Assembly (NCBI GenBank): GCA_022457155.1 | Contig: JAJGOT010000154.1 | Span: 258,501 to 322,500, forward strand | Direction: 5' to 3' | DNA: 64,000 nt | Source: Cladopsammia gracilis | Lineage: Eukaryota > Cnidaria > Anthozoa > Scleractinia > Dendrophylliidae | Part shown: positions 33,807-52,439 of the stretch, one piece after another | Layout of the letters: every line of letters starts with the position of its first letter | How positions within the stretch are numbered: the first letter of the stretch is position 1 | Position numbers and translations under genes: made by a program | The notes under the pieces: generated by a model | What the model saw: the letters and a program-made list of their open reading frames with translations, nothing else | What the model was told of the DNA's origin: nothing | The model's database searches: none

Positions 33807-34886
33807 CACAGGCGGACCACCCGATGTTTGTGTGTGTTGCGTGACATCGTTCAATGGCGGTTACAAAAGAAATATGGGTTAACATAAATAACTTGGCCGC
33901 GATTTGCTCTGAATACTAAGTTTATCCTATATGTTCAATAAAAGTTTAGATGAAATGTTAAATGAGTCTTGTGTGTTATTTTTTGCCCGTTCTGGGCCGT
34001 TTAAGGTGTCATTTTGCGAGATAATTTATTGAACCCTAAGAGTAAGAAGAGAAAGAGAGACAAGGCAGGCAACAAACCAGCCGGCGACCGCGACCTTGTT
34101 CACTTCAAGCGCGATCTGACGCTAAACCAGCACATTTCTCACCTCGAAAACGCCGGCATCCGATTGAGCACAAATTTCTTCGTACTTGTGCCGAGCTTGA
34201 GCTTCAACCTTCCAGAATTTTTCGAGAAAAGCGATCCTGAAGTCCAAAAAACGTGAAAAAACTGCTTTCTCAATATGATCGGTGCCAGATTCATGACCAA
34301 AGGAATTTGAAGAATGCGAGTCCATTCGAACCTACCAATTAACGCAACGCAACGCATCGCTGCCGTTCGCGGTTCAAAAGCCCATTGGTAGATTCGAATG
34401 GACTCGCATTCTTCAGATTCCTTTGGTCATGAATCTGGCACCGATCATATTGAGAAAGCAGTTTTTTGGACTTCAGGATCGCTTTTCTCGAAAAATTCTG
34501 GAAGGATGAAGCTCAAGCTCGGTACAAGTACGAAGACATTTGTGCTCAATCGGATGCCGGCGTTTTCGAGGTGAGAAATGTGCTGGTTTAGCGTCAGATC
34601 GCGCTTGAAGTGGACAAGGTCGCGGTCGCGGCTGGCTTGCTGCCTGCCTTGTCTCTCTTTCTCTTCTTACTCTTGGGGTTCGATAAATTATCTCGCGAAA
34701 TGACACCTTAAACGGCTCAGAACGGGCAAAAAATAACACACAAGACTCATTTAACGTTTCATCTAAACTTTTATTTAACATATAGGATAAACTTAGTATT
34801 CAGAGCAAATCGCGACCAAGTTATTTATGTTAACCCATATTTCTTTTGTAACCGCCATCACACAAACATCGGGTGGTCCGCCTGTG
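33807..34886. mobile_element. 1.08-kb foldback DNA element with 7-bp target duplication
   Basis: Arms of about 540 bases are inverted copies of each other around a centre near 34355. The termini are cacaggcggaccacccgatg and its complement. GCTTTAC occurs directly outside both ends (33800-33806 and 34887-34893), the expected scar of insertion. No transposase is present. ORFs inside (for example 34014-34256 and its mirror image on the minus strand) are arm shadows. Confidence 0.85.
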
Positions 34887-38993: not shown

Positions 38994-39097
38994 AAGACAG
39001 AAACATTAAGGAAAAAAAAACTAGCGGCAGTTGCACCACCATGGTCCACCCCCTGGTCGTGCAATCGCGACCCCGGCATCTGACGGGAAGGGGACGG

Positions 39098-39104
39098 TAT
39101 AAAA
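39098..39104 (+). promoter_or_regulatory. TATA box
   Basis: TATAAAA stands in otherwise G+C-rich sequence (ggacggtataaaagtcccg). A second TATA-like cataaaaag at 39243 is 62 bases from the capsid ATG at 39305 and may be the closer promoter. Confidence 0.5.
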
Positions 39105-39304
39105 GTCCCGTCCAACGCGGGGGGTTGGATCTCGTCGGACGTGGCACCTCCCCCGGGGTATTGGTTCACTCGACGACTACGTCAACGCGGAGGTTGGATC
39201 TCGTCGGACGTCGCGCCTCCACCGGGGTATCGGCTCGCCAGATACATAAAAAGGGTCCACGTGCGTCCACGGCAACTCAAACGTTCACGTCCCTGAACGC
39301 AACC

Positions 39305-40680
39305 ATGTCGTTGGAATTGTTTACGATTCCCACGGCCGACATTGCTCGGCAGGGGTATCGGATGGTCAAGTACAGTCCGTCCACCACGGGCATCCGACCC
39401 ATCACCTTCACGGTGCAAGCGTTGGACGATTTTTGCGATTTGGATCGAAGTTATTTGGAACTGGAACTGCGTTTGCATTCGGCCTCCACCAACGGCCTGG
39501 TGGCGGACGCGAATGCCGCCTCGACGCCGACGATACCCGATTCATATACGCGGTCAACAACATTGCGCATTCCATCTTCAAACAAATGAACCTGCGCTTC
39601 AACGGAGCCCTCATGAGCGAACAGACGGACACGTACGCGTACAAGGCATTCCTAGAAACCATCTTGAATTTTAATAGAGAGGAAGGAGAGACCTTGCTGG
39701 CCGCGCAAGGGTGGGTGAATCAATTGGATGTCGTCCCTCGGATCCAAGCCGGCGGCGCCAACGACGACCTGCCCACCACGGACGGATGGTTGCACAATTC
39801 GGTGCAAGCCCTGAAAACGGCCTCCGTGCGATTTCGCGGCAACCAGACCATGACGTTCCTGATCAAGCCGCACCTGGAAGCCTTTCACACGGGACGTCTT
39901 CTCACCCCGGGCGTAGAAATGGTCTTGGAACTGTTTTGCCACGCCCCCGATTTTTTCACCTTTGGCACCAAGACGAGTGGCACGGGGGTGAAACGGATGG
40001 TGACGTTGAACCACGAGGATCTGAAAGTGACCCTGCATCTGTGCCGCGTGAGTTTGAATCCCACGGTGTACAGCGCGTTGCAAGCCGATCGAAAAAGCAA
40101 GAGAGAGACGGCCAAGTACCCGGTGGTGAGAAGCGAGATCCGGTCCTTTTCGTTCGACGGACGGACCACCAAATTCACGGAAGATAACGTGTTTGTGGGA
40201 AAAGTGCCCGATCGGATGATCGTGGCGTTGGTGGACAGTCGAGCGTTTAACGGCGATGTGGAATGGTATCCGTTTGCTTTTCAAAAATTTGGGGTGACCC
40301 GCATCAAGCAAGTGGTGGATGGGGAAGAATACCCGTACCCCACCCTGGAATTGAATGGAAACAATAATTTGAAAGATTTGAAAGGCTACCGTCGGTTCCT
40401 GGAAGCGTGTGGACGGTTGCAGCACCATGGTTCCTCCATGGTGAGACTGGAGGATTGGGGGCAAGATGGACAATGCACGTTGTTCGCGTTCAACAATGTA
40501 CCCTCGGGCGTGGCGGACGACCCCGAGTACCGAAACCCGAAACAAGCTGGCAATCTACGCGTGGAAATTGATTTCCAGGTTGCTCTGAATACCAATATCA
40601 CCGTGTTGGTCTGGGGCGAGTTTGAAAATCTATTTGAAGTGGATGGCAACGGCGCTGTCTTGTATAACCTGCACCGTTAG
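39305..40680 (+). pseudogene. major capsid (hexon-like, F54H12.2-type) protein, frameshifted
   Basis: An N-terminal part from ATG 39305 (MSLELFTIPTADIAR) is open for about 75 codons. Somewhere between about 39500 and 39545 the coding sense passes to the next frame, which then runs to 40680 (about 380 codons). Recognisable blocks include SIFKQMNLRFNG, DTYAYKAFLETIL, FVGKVPDRMIVALVD and a C-terminal ALNTNITVLVWGEFEN. These match my recollection of the 'uncharacterized protein F54H12.2-like' family of cnidarian virus-like elements, held to be double-jelly-roll capsid proteins. Placement next to the maturation protease supports the role. The single shift makes this copy defective, or reflects an assembly error or recoding. 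Confidence 0.72.
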
Positions 40681-41371: not shown

Positions 41372-41449
41372 CAAGTGGTTGAAAAAAAAGTGTTTCCGGT
41401 GCAATTTTTTAATTTAAATAATAAAAAACAGACCCATTTGACAGCGAAT

Positions 41450-41520
41450 GCTCTGATGGTCTAGTGGTAAAGACGCTGCGTTGTGGCCGCAGAGACCCAG
41501 GTTCGAATCCTGGTCATTGC
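41450..41520 (+). tRNA. tRNA-His-like (anticodon GTG)
   Basis: 71 bases fold as a cloverleaf: D stem gtc/gac, anticodon stem ctgcg/cgcag with loop ttGTGgc, perfect T stem ccagg/cctgg with loop ttcgaat, A box tggtctagtggt and B box ggttcgaatcc. The anticodon arm is identical to that of animal tRNA-His. The acceptor stem (gctctga/tcattgc) has two mismatches, so function is uncertain. It sits between the protease and the next small gene. Confidence 0.7.
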
Positions 41521-41604
41521 ATCTCTCTCTTTTTTTTCTTTTTTTCATCATAAAAAGGGCCACCCCTTGCTGGGAAGGGGACTCATTCGGGACACCTCTT
41601 CAAC

Positions 41605-46440: not shown

Positions 46441-47058
46441 TCACGCCTTATTGTCTTTCAAGGTCAAGACTTGGACGCCTTCGTTCACCAATTGTTTTTC
46501 GAGGGCTTGTAAGCGGGGATCCTTCTCGAAATACTCGGGGATAACAAATTCGCCCGCGTGCTTGTCCATCCCAGCCTGCAAATTGTATTTGGCCAATTTA
46601 CAGAATCCCTCGCAACAGTTGGGTTCCCAGTCGTAACCGTGTCCCGTGTGGTAGGCGGCATCTTTCTCCTCTTCGCACTCCCTGCACAAAATTTGGTCCA
46701 ACAAGAGATCGCAGCGCACTTGCCATTGCAGGCCCCGACGACGTTCCTCTTTCGTGTCTTTCAAGCACTGCGTTTACTCCCGTTGCAACGTCTCGACTCG
46801 AGCGCGGGCCTCTTTCATGTCTGTCGACCACTGCATTTTGTCCCGTTGGTAGGTCTCGATTCGAGCGCGGAGGGACGAGTTGTCGGTCTTCAAGTCCTCG
46901 ACGCAACTCGGGATCTGGCTCCAGGGTACCCCACTGAGTTGACACGTGACATCCGCCATGGCCTTTCGCAGGGACAGATTTTCTTTTTTCACGTCGTTCA
47001 ATTCCTTGGTCAATAACACGTTCTTCACGGATAACGGATCCATCGCGTACCCCAACAT
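46441..47058 (-). pseudogene. coiled-coil/Cys-rich protein with an in-frame stop
   Basis: The ATG at 47058 (MLGYAMDPLSVKN) begins a heptad-rich region (KELNDVKKENLSLRKAM, RARIETYQRDKMQ). A TAA at 46774-46776 interrupts the frame. The same frame continues to 46441 with a Cys/His-rich part (ILCRECEEEKDAAYH, NCCEGFCKLA) and a helical end. It is the only minus-strand gene of the island and shares a divergent promoter region with the 47287 gene. Function is unknown. Dimerisation through the coil and metal binding are inferences. Confidence 0.6.
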
Positions 47059-47207
47059 CGTGCCCGTCCTTTTCTCTCTATCTCTCGAGGCGATTAAATA
47101 GAACGGGGTGGGGTGGCGAGAGACCCTGGGGCGAGTGAAGGGAAAAATGACCCATACCCCCCCATGGGTACCCCGTTCCTTCCCGGCATGCATCGTCCTC
47201 CTTCCCG

Positions 47208-47220
47208 AGGGTATTATAAG
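47208..47220 (+). promoter_or_regulatory. TATA box of the variable-exon gene
   Basis: ggtattataag lies about 70 bases before the ATG at 47287, inside the 228-base divergent gap between the minus-strand coil gene and this gene. Confidence 0.5.
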
Positions 47221-47286
47221 AGCAAGGGGTTCCCACCGTTTTTCACCCTTTCACTCAGTTGTTACGAGCTATAGTGAAAAACAAAC

Positions 47287-47766
47287 ATGGCGTCAAACAA
47301 AGTGGTCACACCCTCGGTGGTGGAAGTCATGCGTGCCAAGCGGAAACGTGTCATGGATGAGAAGGAGACCCGGGTCGCCAAACGCGTGAAAATGGAACCG
47401 GTGGGAGAGGATCCATCCCAGACTGCATCGCTTCCCCATGGAGAGTCTTATTGGGATTATCTACCCATCATCCTCCAAGAACGCATCCTGGATTTGGCGG
47501 CCAGGCAATTGCACCGCGAACGCATGGCACGGGTATGTTTCGACCTTGTATTTCATCGTGTTTGCCAACTTCATAAATGGGTCAAATATTCAGTTAGATG
47601 TGTCGGTTGCAACCATTGCTCGCGACGACGGCGTTACGGGGCCATCGATCAATTATTAACCAAAGTGCGTTCCATCGGTAACCCCCATTCAGCCCATTGG
47701 ACCAATGGCTATTGCAATCAATGCCACGACGATTTGATGCAATCCCGGAAACTTTGTAACCTTTAA
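47287..47766 (+). CDS. variable-exon gene: common head plus module 1 (unspliced form)
   Basis: 159 aa. The first 82 codons (47287-47532) are the common head: a basic VMRAKRKRVMDEKE part and an amphipathic YWDYLPIILQERILDLAARQ helix pair that resembles an F-box-like element (low confidence). At 47533 the sequence cgg/gtatgt is a near-consensus splice donor in phase 0. If the intron is retained the frame runs on into module 1, VCFDLVFHRVCQLHKWV then CVGCNHCSRRRRYGAID and an extra CNQCHDDL. If the donor is used, any of the seven downstream modules can replace it. The homology of module 1 to the others begins exactly at the donor. Not recognised as a known family. Confidence 0.75.
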   Translation: MASNKVVTPSVVEVMRAKRKRVMDEKETRVAKRVKMEPVGEDPSQTASLPHGESYWDYLPIILQERILDLAARQLHRERMARVCFDLVFHRVCQLHKWVKYSVRCVGCNHCSRRRRYGAIDQLLTKVRSIGNPHSAHWTNGYCNQCHDDLMQSRKLCNL

Positions 47767-47790
47767 TTTTTTTTTCTCTTTAACTACAAG

Positions 47791-47922
47791 GTGATGGTCG
47801 AAATCCGCACCTTGCTTCGCTGTCCTGTCACGCAATGGGTGCGACCCTCTCCCAGTCGACGATCGTTTATTATGCGGGACCTCTCTTGCCTCTACTGCCG
47901 GCGACGTGTTGTTAATCTGTAA
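47791..47922 (+). CDS. variable module 2 (alternative 3' exon)
   Basis: Preceded by a T-rich tract and aactacaag acceptor. Opens in phase 0 as VMVEIRTLLRCPVTQW and ends CLYCRRRVVNL before TAA. 43 codons. It shows the array pattern: V/I/L-x-x-E/Q-I/L start, C, W and then C-x-x-C. It is the shortest and lacks the His and the G-x-I-D tail. Confidence 0.65.
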   Translation: MMVEIRTLLRCPVTQWVRPSPSRRSFIMRDLSCLYCRRRVVNL

Positions 47923-47948
47923 TTTTTTTTTTCACCCCACAAACACAG

Positions 47949-48110
47949 ATCACGGGACAGTTACGGGACTCGTACCTCTGCCCACGCTCGCTATGGTTGA
48001 ACACCGAAAAACATACGAACAATCCTACGGTGTGCCAACATTGCAATCGTAAAATCTTCAAGGGCAAAATCGATCGTTTGATTAAAAGAAGGAAACGCAG
48101 AGATCACTAA
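47949..48110 (+). CDS. variable module 3 (alternative 3' exon)
   Basis: Acceptor ccacaaacacag follows a T9-type tract. Opens ITGQLRDSYLCPRSLW, then VCQHCNRKIFKGKIDRL and a basic end. 53 codons, phase 0 with the common donor. Confidence 0.7.
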   Translation: MTGQLRDSYLCPRSLWLNTEKHTNNPTVCQHCNRKIFKGKIDRLIKRRKRRDH

Positions 48111-48138
48111 TTTTCATTTTTTATTTCACATTGTACAG

Positions 48139-48279
48139 TTGATTTTAGAAATACAAGACTTGCCCGTTTGCGCCGTTTCTATTTGGGGCGATCCCACTCC
48201 GTCATCGTATTGTCAACATTGTTTGCGACGATGGACAGACGGGGATATCGACGATCGTTTTCTTCTCCGTTTCTTTTAG
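48139..48279 (+). CDS. variable module 4 (alternative 3' exon)
   Basis: Acceptor cacattgtacag. Opens LILEIQDLPVCAVSIW, then YCQHCLRRWTDGDIDD. 46 codons. Its TAG stop (48277-48279) is at the same time the AG of the acceptor of module 5. Confidence 0.7.
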   Translation: MILEIQDLPVCAVSIWGDPTPSSYCQHCLRRWTDGDIDDRFLLRFF

Positions 48280-48525
48280 TTGATGCAAGAACTCGGGCAA
48301 TCCGTCGTGTGTCCGTGCACCAAATGGGTCACCAATCCCGCGTTGCTTTATTGTCAACATTGTCGACGCATAGAACTGTTTGGGCGACTCGATTTTCTCG
48401 TCGCCCATTCCCTCGATTGGGCTCACGACGATTTTATGGACAGACACGACGCCGTTTACAACGATGATCACCTGATTGCTTTTGCGGACAAACGTTTAAA
48501 TTTACGTTTTTATCAACACGTGTAA
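48280..48525 (+). CDS. variable module 5 (alternative 3' exon)
   Basis: Acceptor ccgtttcttttag. Opens LMQELGQSVVCPCTKW, then LYCQHCRRIELFGRLDFL and the longest tail of the set (rich in Asp and His, ending LRFYQHV). 81 codons. Confidence 0.7.
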   Translation: MMQELGQSVVCPCTKWVTNPALLYCQHCRRIELFGRLDFLVAHSLDWAHDDFMDRHDAVYNDDHLIAFADKRLNLRFYQHV

Positions 48526-48574
48526 TTATTTTTTAAAAAACAATCGTGAATTAATGTTGTTGTTGTTTTTTCAG

Positions 48575-48736
48575 ATTCTGGATCAATTGCTGTCTTTTCG
48601 CGTTTGCCCCTTGTACCTATGGTCCACGCGATCCTTCTTTCTTTCCTATCCATGCTGCCATTGCGTGCGGGGACTGGGCCTGGGAACCATTGACGATTGG
48701 TTGAAATACAAAAAGCGACAAAACCACTCAACGTGA
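48575..48736 (+). CDS. variable module 6 (alternative 3' exon)
   Basis: Acceptor gttgttttttcag. Opens ILDQLLSFRVCPLYLW, then PCCHCVRGLGLGTIDDWL. 53 codons. Confidence 0.72.
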   Translation: MLDQLLSFRVCPLYLWSTRSFFLSYPCCHCVRGLGLGTIDDWLKYKKRQNHST

Positions 48737-48751
48737 CTTCCCTTTTTTCAG

Positions 48752-48919
48752 GTCATGACGCAATTGACATCCCTGTTTGTTTGCGGTCACACCCTATGGT
48801 CCACCCGTTTGGTGCCTAAATGGATCACTCCCAATCTTCGAGTGTTTTTATGCCAACATTGTTTACGAAAAAAAACACGTGGTTCCATTGACAGTGGTTT
48901 CCTCCGTTTCAGGTCATGA
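48752..48919 (+). CDS. variable module 7 (alternative 3' exon)
   Basis: Acceptor cccttttttcag. Opens VMTQLTSLFVCGHTLW, then FLCQHCLRKKTRGSID. 55 codons. It reads across the acceptor of module 8 and stops at the TGA inside that module's gtcATGAcg start. Confidence 0.7.
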   Translation, partial: VMTQLTSLFVCGHTLWSTRLVPKWITPNLRVFLCQHCLRKKTRGSIDSGFLRFRS

Positions 48920-49119
48920 CGCAATTGAAATCCCTGATCGTGTGCGGCTTCCGACAATGGACCACCTGCAGCGCCGATCCCTGGATTCTATGCAACCATT
49001 GCATTCGGTATTTTGCTCTCGGGTCCATTGACGACTGGCTCGAAAAGAACAAACCGCCGCCACCCAGAAGCTATTGGGGTGAAATCTACAACACACGAAC
49101 AAATCCATTCATGGAGTGA
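48913..49119 (+). CDS. variable module 8 (alternative 3' exon)
   Basis: Acceptor cctccgtttcag. Opens VMTQLKSLIVCGFRQW, then LCNHCIRYFALGSIDDWL and a Pro/Tyr-rich tail (PPPPRSYWGEIYN). 68 codons. Its first codons are nearly identical to module 7, the most recent duplication of the array. An attaaa lies at 49162. Confidence 0.72.
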   Translation, partial: VMTQLKSLIVCGFRQWTTCSADPWILCNHCIRYFALGSIDDWLEKNKPPPPRSYWGEIYNTRTNPFME

Positions 49120-49204
49120 ACTCATGTTCCCACATGTATTTTGTTGTTTCGTTGTGTGACTATTAAAAGGCATTTTTTGCGTTATTTTCTGTTATTTTTC
49201 CTGT

Positions 49205-49500
49205 CTCTCTGACCGAGCGGGATCTGGGACCCACCCCGCGTGCGGAACCAGTGCGTCCAGTCACTCATCCCCGAGTGACCCCCGAGCGATTCCCGAACCA
49301 CCCCGAGCGACCCCCGAACCCATCCCCCGAGTGGGATCTGGGACCCACCCCGATACCTGAGCCCGCGATCCAAAAAAGGTTGTTTCCGGTCAGCGGTCTT
49401 TTCCTGAGCCCGCGATCCAAAAACATTTATTTCCGGTCAGCGGTATCTGAGCCCGCGATCCAAACGAGGTCACTTCCGGTCAGCGGTCACCCACCCTCAG
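49205..49500. repeat. tandem repeats at the right edge of the viral island
   Basis: Two related sets occur: gggatctgggacccacccc (49219, 49329) with alternating cccgagcga units between them, and three units of about 45 bases containing tgagcccgcgatccaaa (near 49359, 49404 and 49449), each followed by ttccggtcagcggt. The block is G+C-rich like the island and could be a terminal repeat region. Confidence 0.6.
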
Positions 49501-49884
49501 GCAAGCGCTACCCAAGGTTACTTCCGTTTTCATAAAAAACCCATGATGTCATTGCACGTGTACAGATTTTCGGTGGTCGTCTCTGATTGGCTAACCGAAG
49601 TCACGTGTGCTAAATCCTGGCTCCTGATTGGTCCGCCTAAGGGTTGATCGCCCTTAACTACTGTCTGACGATTGTTGTCATTTTGATGATTGGAAACCAA
49701 ATTAATAAACTCTGCCTAAAGAAATTCTTGAATTATATGGGGTTTGGCGCAAAACTGAAAAATCAGGAGAGGTTATCACTGGAACTGACATTTTTTTCCA
49801 ACTAGAAGAGGTTGTGTTGAAATGGCATCCTATTATTGTCAAGTTACAAGATAAGGTAAAACAGTTGCAAGAAGAAAAGGATGT

Positions 49885-50090: not shown

Positions 50091-50281
50091 TCAAAGGGGT
50101 CGGTCTAAATTGCTCCTGAATCCCGGAATGTATAGGAGGCACCGAGTTAACCCCTTTTTGAAGGGGAATGTCATTAATCTGAAGGGCAATACATTAACGC
50201 CAGTGATGTCATAGCCTATTGTCTTGAACTCATGAATAAAATGCTGTGGAATCTCATTAACATGAAGTGGAATCTCATTAA

Positions 50282-52042
50282 GGTGTTTCCCTCCAGTTTC
50301 CGTGTAGCCGCACCGACCGTTTTTGAGCGGCCGTTTAACTAACTTTCCTTTATTGAATTAGAATGAAACTTACACAAAATATTGTACAAAGTTTGAAGTT
50401 TATAAGAGTGTAACAATTTTAAAAATTGGATTTAAAATTGCGGAGATAAACGAGAAACATTGAAATCGCTTGAGTCTAAATTCCGAGCGATTGCGATGGC
50501 ATCTAGAAAAATCAAAACTATTACGATAAACTATGACATATGGCAAACAAAATATCTTAAAATTAGAAACTTTTGTCAAGCCGATTTTGAGTAAATCAGA
50601 AAAACATTTCGAACTTGTGATTTTGCATGTGTATGAGCACATCTACAAATTCCTCAATTAAGCTTATAAAAGTTTAATTTCTCAATCTCAAATTTACGCC
50701 AAAATGTGTGTTTAGTGTATGAGATGAAACTGTGAAAGTTTGAAAGCGTTTCTCGTTTTAGTTTTGGAGATTCGATTTTCTGTAGGAAACCGTAGTTTTT
50801 TGACTGAGTCCTTGATATTGTAGTTTTAGCACTTTTCTACATATTTCAAAAACCGCGAGATAGATTTTTTTAAAACTTTTATGGTCATTTCTTTATAATA
50901 TGAACAACATTGTCTCAAAGTTTCATCTTGATTGAAACATTGCAACATGGTCAAATAAAATAATAAAGCTCACCTAAAATGTGATTGAGACTTTGTACTT
51001 TGATTGCACGGTTGAAGGCGCAAGTCGTAAAGACGCTTTAATTAATTCAGGTGAAGTGTAACGCATTTCGGCGTGTTGAGAATTATGCAAATCGCAATGA
51101 CTTCTTTCTTTTCCCTACAATTCAAAATGTCGAGAGAGTCCAGAGCACGTCAAATGCGAATAAAAAACCTGCTTACAAATAAACCTCCCACTGAAATTCG
51201 TGGGAATGATAAAAATAACGTGGAACACAGCCCCTAACGTTACTCCGCAAAACATGATGCCTTGCGCTTCACCTGAATTAATTAAAGTGTCTTTACGACT
51301 TGCGCCTTCAACCGTGCAATCAAAGCACAAAGTCTCAATCGCGTTTTGGGTGAACTTTATTATTTTATTTGACCATGTTGCAATGTTTCAATCAAGATGA
51401 AACTTCGAGACAATGTTGTTCATATTATAAAGAAACGACTAAAAAAGTTTTAAAAAAATCTATCTCGCGGTTTTTGAAATATATAGAAAAGCGCTAAAAC
51501 TACAATATCAAGGACTCAGTCAAAAAAACTATGGTTTCCTATAGAAAATCGAATCTCCAAAACTAAAACGAGAAACGCTTTCAAACTTTCATAGTTTCAT
51601 CTCATACTCTAAACTCGCATTTTGGCGTAAATTTGAAATTGAGAAATTAAACTTTTATAAGCTTAATTGAGGAACTTATTGATGTGCTCATACACGTGCA
51701 AAATCACAAGTTCGAAATGTTCTCCTGATTTACTAAAAATCGGCTTGACAAAATTTTCTAATTTTTAGATATTTTGTTTGCCATATGTCATAGTTTATTG
51801 TAATAGTTTTGATTTTTCTAGATGCCATCGCAATCGCTCGGAATTTTGACTCAAGCGATTTCAATGTTTCTCGTTTATCTCCGCAATTTTAAATCCGATT
51901 TTCAAAATTGTTACAATCTTATAAACTTCAAACTAAGTACAATATTTTGTGTAAGTTTCATACTAATTCAATAAAGGAAAGTTAGCTAAACGGCCGCTTT
52001 AAAATGGTCGGTGCGGCTGCATGGAAACTGGAGGGAAACACC
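50282..52042. mobile_element. 1.76-kb palindromic DNA element with TTAA target sites
   Basis: Two arms of about 870 bases are inverted copies with only scattered mismatches. The centre is near 51160. The ends are ggtgtttccctccagtttcc and its complement. TTAA stands immediately outside both ends (50278-50281 and 52043-52046), as expected for a TTAA-targeting element. There is no transposase. The short ORFs on both strands are arm shadows. Confidence 0.85.
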
Positions 52043-52439
52043 TTAACGTGAAGTGGAATTTTTATTTACGTGCGGTGAAATACGTTAAGTAGGTTTTTTT
52101 CTCGTGAATAAAATGCGGTGGCATCTCATTGGCGTATATCCGGTCTGTTAACTTGTTTGACATAGGTATGTTTACGTTATGAGTGGTGATGGTACCTTAT
52201 GTGGAGATGATGTAATCTCGATGATGAACACTTGTATCACCTTGTTTGGTAATGACAGACACATTTTCAATGACTTCATGTTTACGTTATGAGTGGTGAT
52301 GGCTGGTGTAACCAGTTTGACGGGGTTCCTTCCGGTTTCACAATTTATTGTTTGGTAAGCATAAAAGCTCTCGCGCTGTCCACGGTATCATTCACTATTC
52401 GAGACTTGAGAAGCGTTAGATCTCAACCAGTTCACCACT

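What the first reader, a model, noticed from the sequence alone, without database searches (positions are those of the whole stretch)
47287..49119. Array of eight interchangeable 3' modules behind one common exon: an alternative-splicing diversity cassette in a viral island
Seen directly: an 82-codon head ends at a cgg/gtatgt donor in phase 0. Downstream, seven units each start right after a T-rich tract plus AG, all in phase 0, and each ends in its own stop. All share a pattern: (V/I/L)-(M/L/I)-x-(Q/E)-(L/I), then about five residues, C, a W five or so later, then C-x-(H/Y/R)-C, and mostly G-x-I-D. Module 1 begins exactly at the donor. Inference: the head can be joined to any of the seven, or to module 1 by intron retention, giving up to eight proteins with variable putative metal-binding tails. 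I know of no described Polinton or adintovirus gene built this way. The repeated acceptors argue for selection, since chance would not keep seven phase-0 acceptors.
Basis: partly seen in the sequence, partly recalled or inferred. Interest (0 to 1): 0.95.

Follow-up and report, generated by a model that had tools for sequence, protein, structure and literature searches.

The report
Coral virus gene with swappable tails
An integrated virus, probably in a stony coral genome, carries one shared gene start followed by eight related gene endings, and conserved splice signals suggest that it likely makes up to eight versions of one protein.

Summary
An 82-codon head (47287-47532) ends at a phase-0 donor (CGG|GTATGT), runs on in frame into module 1, and is followed by seven phase-0 modules, each starting right after a pyrimidine tract plus AG and ending in its own stop. 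The eight modules are homologous: each ranks 1 of 1131 in a leave-one-out HMM. The same genome holds 73 head loci. In 61 other copies the acceptor AG is intact at 368 of 373 covered sites and the donor GT at 55 of 56. AG bases change about four times less often than spacers (5 against 20.4 expected, Poisson P 5e-5). Modules 2-8 together are under purifying selection (pN/pS 0.59, 0.48-0.75). Array length differs between copies. Best reading: one donor chooses among seven acceptors, or the intron is kept, giving up to eight tails on one N-terminus. No RNA evidence was available. Head and modules match no known family, so metal binding and function are inferred. The plan resembles Drosophila lola, here inside a Polinton/adintovirus-like element.

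The parts
47206..47225 (+). TATA-like promoter stretch of the cassette (TATTATAAG in this copy)
   Evidence: Sequence; of 40 aligned rows 25 read TATAATAAG and 6 TATATTAAG in an otherwise identical stretch. Promoter function inferred.
47287..47532 (+). Common exon (head), 82 codons, no Cys, basic Lys/Arg clusters
   Evidence: pN/pS 0.54 (0.34-0.94) between near and far copies; relatives P0001, P0002.
47533..47538 (+). Splice donor GTATGT, phase 0
   Evidence: GT intact in 55 of 56 covered other copies; the only strict donor consensus in the cassette.
47533..47766 (+). Module 1, in frame with the head (unspliced form), 77 aa
47789..47922 (+). Acceptor AG (47789-47790) and module 2, 43 aa
   Evidence: AG intact 56 of 57.
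47947..48110 (+). Acceptor AG and module 3, 53 aa, no in-frame ATG in this copy
   Evidence: AG intact 59 of 59; codon 2 is ATG in 5 of 60 rows.
48137..48279 (+). Acceptor AG and module 4, 46 aa, no in-frame ATG; its stop TAG ends in the acceptor AG of module 5
   Evidence: AG intact 58 of 58.
48278..48525 (+). Acceptor AG and module 5, 81 aa
   Evidence: AG intact 57 of 57; 76 matches in the genome, many with a frame of exactly 81 aa.
48573..48736 (+). Acceptor AG and module 6, 53 aa; no ATG in the module, one in frame upstream inside the pyrimidine tract
   Evidence: AG intact 53 of 55.
48750..48919 (+). Acceptor AG and module 7, 55 aa; its end overlaps the start of module 8; absent from 15 of 39 close copies
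   Evidence: AG intact 32 of 33; absence.
48911..49119 (+). Acceptor AG and module 8, 68 aa
   Evidence: AG intact 53 of 54 and pN/pS 0.39 (0.23-0.69).
49162..49167 (+). Likely shared poly(A) signal ATTAAA after the last module
   Evidence: Scan; a second ATTAAA lies inside module 3 at 48081; no AATAAA within 47287-49119. Function inferred.
49120..49672 (+). Right end of the element as shared by copies
   Evidence: blastn of copies against the window ends at about 49662-49672 in several copies.

Best explanation
The cassette is one viral gene whose 82-codon first exon is predicted to be spliced from a single donor to any one of seven downstream acceptors, or left unspliced, so that up to eight proteins with the same N-terminus and different Cys/Trp-rich tails would be made. 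Shown: the donor, the seven phase-0 acceptors, the homology of the eight tails, the conservation of the signals and the purifying selection on the pooled tails across tens of copies, and differences in array length. Inferred: one promoter and one shared poly(A) site, so that choosing acceptor k removes the tails before it and leaves those after it in the 3' untranslated part; the stop is then always in the last exon, so exon-junction-dependent decay should not act. Inferred and weaker: the head is a basic, nuclear-type adaptor and each tail a small metal-stabilised binding domain with its own partner, giving the virus a panel of related regulators from about 1.8 kb at its right end.
For: Acceptor AG intact at 368 of 373 and donor GT at 55 of 56 covered sites of 61 other copies. 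Parsimony changes at the 14 AG bases: 5, against 20.4 expected at the spacer rate (192 changes in 132 sites), Poisson P 5e-5; at the five acceptors outside coding sequence 4 against 14.5, P 0.001; other AGs in the cassette changed 94 times in 76 sites. In two close copies the base before AG changed between C and T, and in one of them (L033) module 4 loses its stop while the acceptor of module 5 stays. Pyrimidine tracts mark 7 of 7 module starts and 1 of the other 25 AGs. Modules 3 and 4 have no in-frame ATG after the upstream stop, and module 6 has one only inside its pyrimidine tract. pN/pS between near and far copies: modules 2-8 0.59 (0.48-0.75), head 0.54 (0.34-0.94). Position-2 changes of modules 2-5 fall on internal branches in 39 of 210 cases against 67 of 192 for spacers (P 2.7e-4) and 96 of 332 for position 3 (P 0.008). 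AG is scarce after the donor, 0.41 of expectation against 0.51-0.87 in most other stretches of the element; synonymous shuffles with the codons of five other ORFs give 26 against 43.6, P 0.0005.
Against: No RNA or protein data. Five of 373 acceptor sites have lost AG, two of them in close copies (L027 module 7, L041 module 6); L040 has a gap over the acceptor of module 2; two degenerate copies without modules 2-8 (L092, L095) have no GT at the donor by head coordinates and are not among the 56 covered. Modules 1, 6 and 7 show no significant constraint on their own; with module 6 included the position-2 against position-3 test is not significant (P 0.08); module 7 shows an excess of internal position-2 changes, probably because copies without it align badly there. 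Module 2 has dN/dS 0.98 among near copies. Cys and Trp (mostly 0.90-1.00 kept) are barely better kept than other residues (means 0.89-0.97). The AG scarcity is not significant when the cassette's own codons are shuffled (26 against 32, P 0.12), the element is poor in AG and CT throughout, and one short ORF (39041-39589) is poorer, 0.31. No intronless retrocopy among 70 other heads. L098 and L099 continue into a different single tail with no array. 48 of 97 capsid-gene places have no head downstream.
Confidence: 0.82

Rival explanations
1. Only one or two acceptors are used and the rest of the array is a store of spare tails that recombination moves into use, as in gene-conversion cassettes.
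For: Array length differs: module 7 is absent in 15 of 39 close copies, L080 holds a second module 4 and part of a second module 5, modules 7 and 8 are 73% alike over 82 nt.
Against: All seven acceptors keep their AG in 32 to 59 other copies each; a silent store needs no acceptors. Module order is kept in copies with about 78% head identity.
Confidence: 0.08
2. The modules are separate small genes, each with its own start.
For: Modules 2, 5, 7 and 8 have ATG as second codon, kept in 198 of 204 rows; module 3 has one there in 5 of 60 rows; module 6 has an in-frame ATG in its pyrimidine tract.
Against: Modules 3 and 4 have no in-frame ATG in this copy; in-frame stops lie 0-25 codons upstream; an AG after a pyrimidine tract sits exactly at each start; spacers of 0-49 nt, or an overlap, leave little room for promoters.
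Confidence: 0.04
3. The seven acceptors receive another leader exon, viral or trans-spliced, rather than this head.
For: Adenovirus leaders are joined to many acceptors (recalled). Not tested by any search.
Against: Phase-0 modules without ATG need a coding leader; the head is the adjacent coding exon with the one strict donor, in phase, and module 1 shows head and module together in one frame.
Confidence: 0.04
4. A decayed tandem duplication without function.
For: Many copies have broken frames in some part; among 40 close rows the head is open in 31 of 37 covered, module 1 in 27 of 37, module 6 in 32 of 40, module 7 in 18 of 25.
Against: Selection and AG conservation; modules 3 and 4 are open in 40 of 40 close rows, module 2 in 37 of 38, module 5 in 36 of 40.
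Confidence: 0.02

Closest known systems
Drosophila lola (and mod(mdg4), the latter recalled)
   Same: A common N-terminal region joined by splicing to about 20 unique C-terminal exons, most with zinc fingers (passages of PMC1947980).
   Different: A host gene, far larger (recalled), with a BTB domain and C2H2 or C2HC fingers; here 1.8 kb, viral, packed acceptors, no family recognised.
Polyomavirus T antigens (recalled, no call)
   Same: A common N-terminal exon of about 80 residues joined to alternative tails; the small form carries a Cys motif.
   Different: A few products with unlike tails and a J domain; here eight homologous tails in tandem.
Adenovirus E4 / right-end early region (recalled, no call)
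   Same: Small Cys-rich regulators from one right-end unit by differential splicing.
   Different: Mostly distinct ORFs rather than tails on one head; no Pfam relation found.
Adintoviruses / Polintons, incl. Stylophora coral adintovirus (passages of PMC11071308)
   Same: Capsid protein related to coral Major capsid / F54H12.2-like proteins, PLA2-like domain, weak protease and ATPase matches.
   Different: No polymerase or integrase among the nine island ORFs scanned; no such tail array in the papers searched.

Membership tests
Alternative-3'-exon gene (lola-like architecture) | One constant coding exon with a donor, several acceptor-led alternative C-terminal exons in the same phase | tested here: met
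   Sequence signals and their conservation.
Alternative-3'-exon gene (lola-like architecture) | Mature transcripts joining the constant exon to different tails | not testable with these tools
   No RNA collection on hand; the two database relatives are head plus module 1 on contigs of 597 and 685 bases of unknown kind.
Polinton / adintovirus | Major capsid protein homologous to known ones | tested here: met
   332 hits, 120 listed; the named ones include coral Major capsid, Capsid and F54H12.2-like proteins. By sequence and label only.
Polinton / adintovirus | Adenovirus-type protease and packaging ATPase | tested here: inconclusive
   Peptidase_C5 E 0.07 and Adeno_IVa2 E 0.23, both below cut-off.
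Polinton / adintovirus | Type B DNA polymerase and rve integrase in the element | tested here: inconclusive
   PF03175 is abundant in the genome, but only 76 of 3789 candidates were scored and the list is cut; by eye none of those listed lies within 25 kb of a head. Integrase not tested.
F-box protein (head) | Match to an F-box profile | tested here: not met
   No Pfam family for the head at E up to 10; a loose LP...IL...VC resemblance is recalled only.
Zinc finger (modules) | Match to a known zinc-binding family, or a confident fold with a complete site | tested here: not met
   No Pfam match above cut-off for seven modules scanned alone, PDB matches weak (best E 0.023), AF2 pLDDT 59.7, pTM 0.27. 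Three invariant Cys plus H in 7 of 8.

The most novel reading that the evidence does not exclude
A virus that carries a tail library: one promoter, one donor and seven competing acceptors give eight adaptor proteins with a common head and exchangeable homologous tails, while unequal recombination adds and removes tails, so that array length itself evolves against the host.
Probability: 0.5. Interest if true: 0.92.

Novelty: new variant of a known kind. Interest (0 to 1): 0.8.

Why it matters
It would be a compact viral version of a lola-type diversity gene, packed so tightly that stops and acceptors overlap. It shows how a small DNA virus could field a panel of related regulators from 1.8 kb. 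With over 70 copies of differing divergence in one genome it allows direct study of how tails are gained, lost and kept, and junction reads in public coral RNA data could test it at once.

Tried and rejected
Structure: head plus module 1 with three sequences gave mean pLDDT 45.1, the eight modules as an alignment 59.7; both too poor for a fold search, so none was run. Head as F-box: no profile support. Relatives elsewhere: the head found 2 of 17 candidates; the module alignment against 5.8 billion proteins had 36 candidates, none at E 0.01; viral contigs with the head and with two capsid queries gave none. A retrocopy with the head joined directly to a later module: none among 70 other heads; L103 looked like one but is a deletion from inside the head into the middle of module 2. 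Overlap of stop codons with branch points: by eye only about half fit the usual motif, so it is not claimed. The first multiple alignment of divergent copies was stretched and was replaced by pairwise alignments to the window. Terminal inverted repeats of the element: none convincing. Whether elements without a head carry another right arm could not be asked (server busy).

Dropped rows: L092 and L095 left the masked alignment because too little aligned, and windows under 68% identity were masked there; the unmasked counts are. L098, L099, L101 and L103-L110 were not put into those alignments. The near/far comparison used 40 near and 9 far rows of 60; 11 rows in between were left out. Head loci not read: C603 and C1057:228874 of 73. 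In one search module 8 was read in the wrong frame and was redone.

Full report
Where it lies. The window is G000:C282:258501-322500 of an 877.8 Mb assembly. An island at about 38-49.7 kb has GC 0.44-0.61 against 0.32-0.45 elsewhere. It encodes a major-capsid-like protein whose nearest named relatives are from the stony corals Porites and Montipora, so the host is probably a stony coral (inferred). It also holds weak, below-cut-off matches to adenovirus protease and IVa2 ATPase, and a phospholipase A2-like domain (PF08398, E 4.5e-11). Flanking host ORFs are TPR/CHAT genes and a reverse-transcriptase fragment.

The observation. The head, the donor, module 1 and seven acceptor-led modules are as described. 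Distances from one stop to the next acceptor are 24, 26, 28, 0, 49 and 15 nt, and -7 nt for modules 7 to 8. The stop of module 4 (TAG) is also the end of the acceptor of module 5, and the last codons of module 7 form the pyrimidine tract and AG of module 8 (sequence). Introns would be 258, 416, 606, 747, 1042, 1219 and 1380 nt. The modules are one family: each, scored by an HMM of the other seven, ranks first of 1131 targets (itself, 200 shuffles of it, 930 other ORF segments of the window), E 4e-6 to 2e-13. Modules 3 and 4 have no in-frame ATG after the stop that precedes them; module 6 has one only in its pyrimidine tract. Across rows, codon 2 of module 3 is ATG in 5 of 60, and the ATG at codon 2 of modules 2, 5, 7 and 8 is kept in 198 of 204.

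Copies. A head search gave 80 matches, 73 loci once neighbouring fragments were merged by hand (list). I read 70 of them besides the window; in 65 module 1 follows within 80 nt of the head's end. The five others are L098 and L099 (distant heads with another tail), L103 and L104 (deletions) and L108 (fragment with a gap). The capsid search scored 101 of 553 candidates. I listed 97 places (C1087 twice): 49 have a head 0-20 kb downstream on the same strand, median 7685 nt, and 48 have none; at two of those 48 (C302, C1400) module 5 is nevertheless found 2.5-6.5 kb downstream. All these counts are lower bounds by the tool's own statement. The cassette travels with the element, but was not found in every one.

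Conservation of splice signals. In 61 other copies (39 close; 20 divergent; L100 and L102) the unmasked counts of intact AG are 56/57, 59/59, 58/58, 57/57, 53/55, 32/33 and 53/54; the donor GT is 55/56. The degenerate copies L092 and L095 have no GT at the donor by head coordinates and are not among those covered. In the masked alignment (60 rows, window included) the 14 AG bases changed 5 times, while 132 spacer bases changed 192 times: 20.4 expected, Poisson P 5e-5. Changes on a tree are not fully independent, so P is a guide.

Selection on the proteins. Between 40 near rows (window plus 39) and nine far ones pN/pS is 0.54 (0.34-0.94) for the head, 0.74 for module 1 (not significant), 0.59 (0.44-0.77) for modules 2-5, 0.70 for module 6 and 0.91 for module 7 (both not significant), 0.39 (0.23-0.69) for module 8 and 0.59 (0.48-0.75) for modules 2-8 together. 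Among near rows dN/dS is 0.27-0.74 except module 2, 0.98. Inserted copies also drift freely, so these values should understate constraint (inference). Cys and Trp of the modules are kept in 0.90-1.00 of rows, except Cys19 of module 8 at 0.04; other residues average 0.89-0.97, so the margin is small.

Array dynamics. Module 7 is absent in 15 of 39 close copies; L040 has a gap over the acceptor of module 2. Divergent copies such as L087, L091 and L093 have module 7, so its absence looks derived (inferred). L080 has a second module 4 and part of a second module 5.

How it likely works. One promoter (TATA-like, 47206-47225) and a shared poly(A) signal (ATTAAA 49162; another ATTAAA at 48081 is inside module 3) would frame one transcription unit (inferred). 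A donor joins one acceptor per transcript and each tail ends in its own stop, so the tails exclude each other by geometry. Retention gives module 1. AG is scarce after the donor (0.41 of expectation), beyond the general shortage in the element (0.51-0.87 in most stretches, 0.31 in one short ORF), as would be expected where stray acceptors are costly; the test with the cassette's own codons is not significant. A second donor-like site inside module 1 (47665, phase 0) could join head plus the core of module 1 to a later tail; this is open.

What it is not shown to be. No Pfam family matches head or modules above cut-off, no solved structure matches head plus module 1 at E up to 10, the modules get only weak PDB matches, best E 0.023, and both AF2 models are weak. 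The metal site (three Cys, His in 7 of 8) is a prediction. The head is basic and could be nuclear (inferred).

Known kinds. The plan is that of lola, where a common N-terminal region is spliced to about 20 C-terminal exons (passages seen, PMC1947980), and in smaller form that of polyomavirus T antigens (recalled). I found no report of it in Polintons or adintoviruses: listings, passages of PMC11071296, PMC11071308 and PMC6431247. The founding adintovirus paper was not held. Searches were broader listings.

Noticed in passing
window 41449-41523 (+): A tRNA-His gene (anticodon GTG) lies inside the viral island just after the protease-like ORF (ARAGORN; Rfam 60.9 bits).
   Followed up: no
window 39041-40680: In this copy the capsid reading frame is split over two overlapping ORFs; longer uninterrupted frames exist in other copies.
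   Followed up: partly
G000, 48 capsid-gene places: 48 of 97 listed capsid-gene places, several 94-97% identical to the window's, have no cassette head found downstream; they may carry another right arm.
   Followed up: partly
L098, L099: Distant head relatives run into a different single tail with CDKC and no array, a possible pre-array form.
   Followed up: partly
window 46774-47193 (-): A coiled-coil-like ORF lies head to head with the cassette and may share its promoter.
   Followed up: no
window 47665: A second phase-0 donor-like site inside module 1 (GT in 58 of 58 covered rows).
   Followed up: partly
window 49351-49488: Three copies of a 48-nt repeat near the right end of the element.
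   Followed up: no
window 50273-52051 and 34000-34712: Large inverted repeats, arms 94-98% complementary, in the flanking DNA.
   Followed up: no
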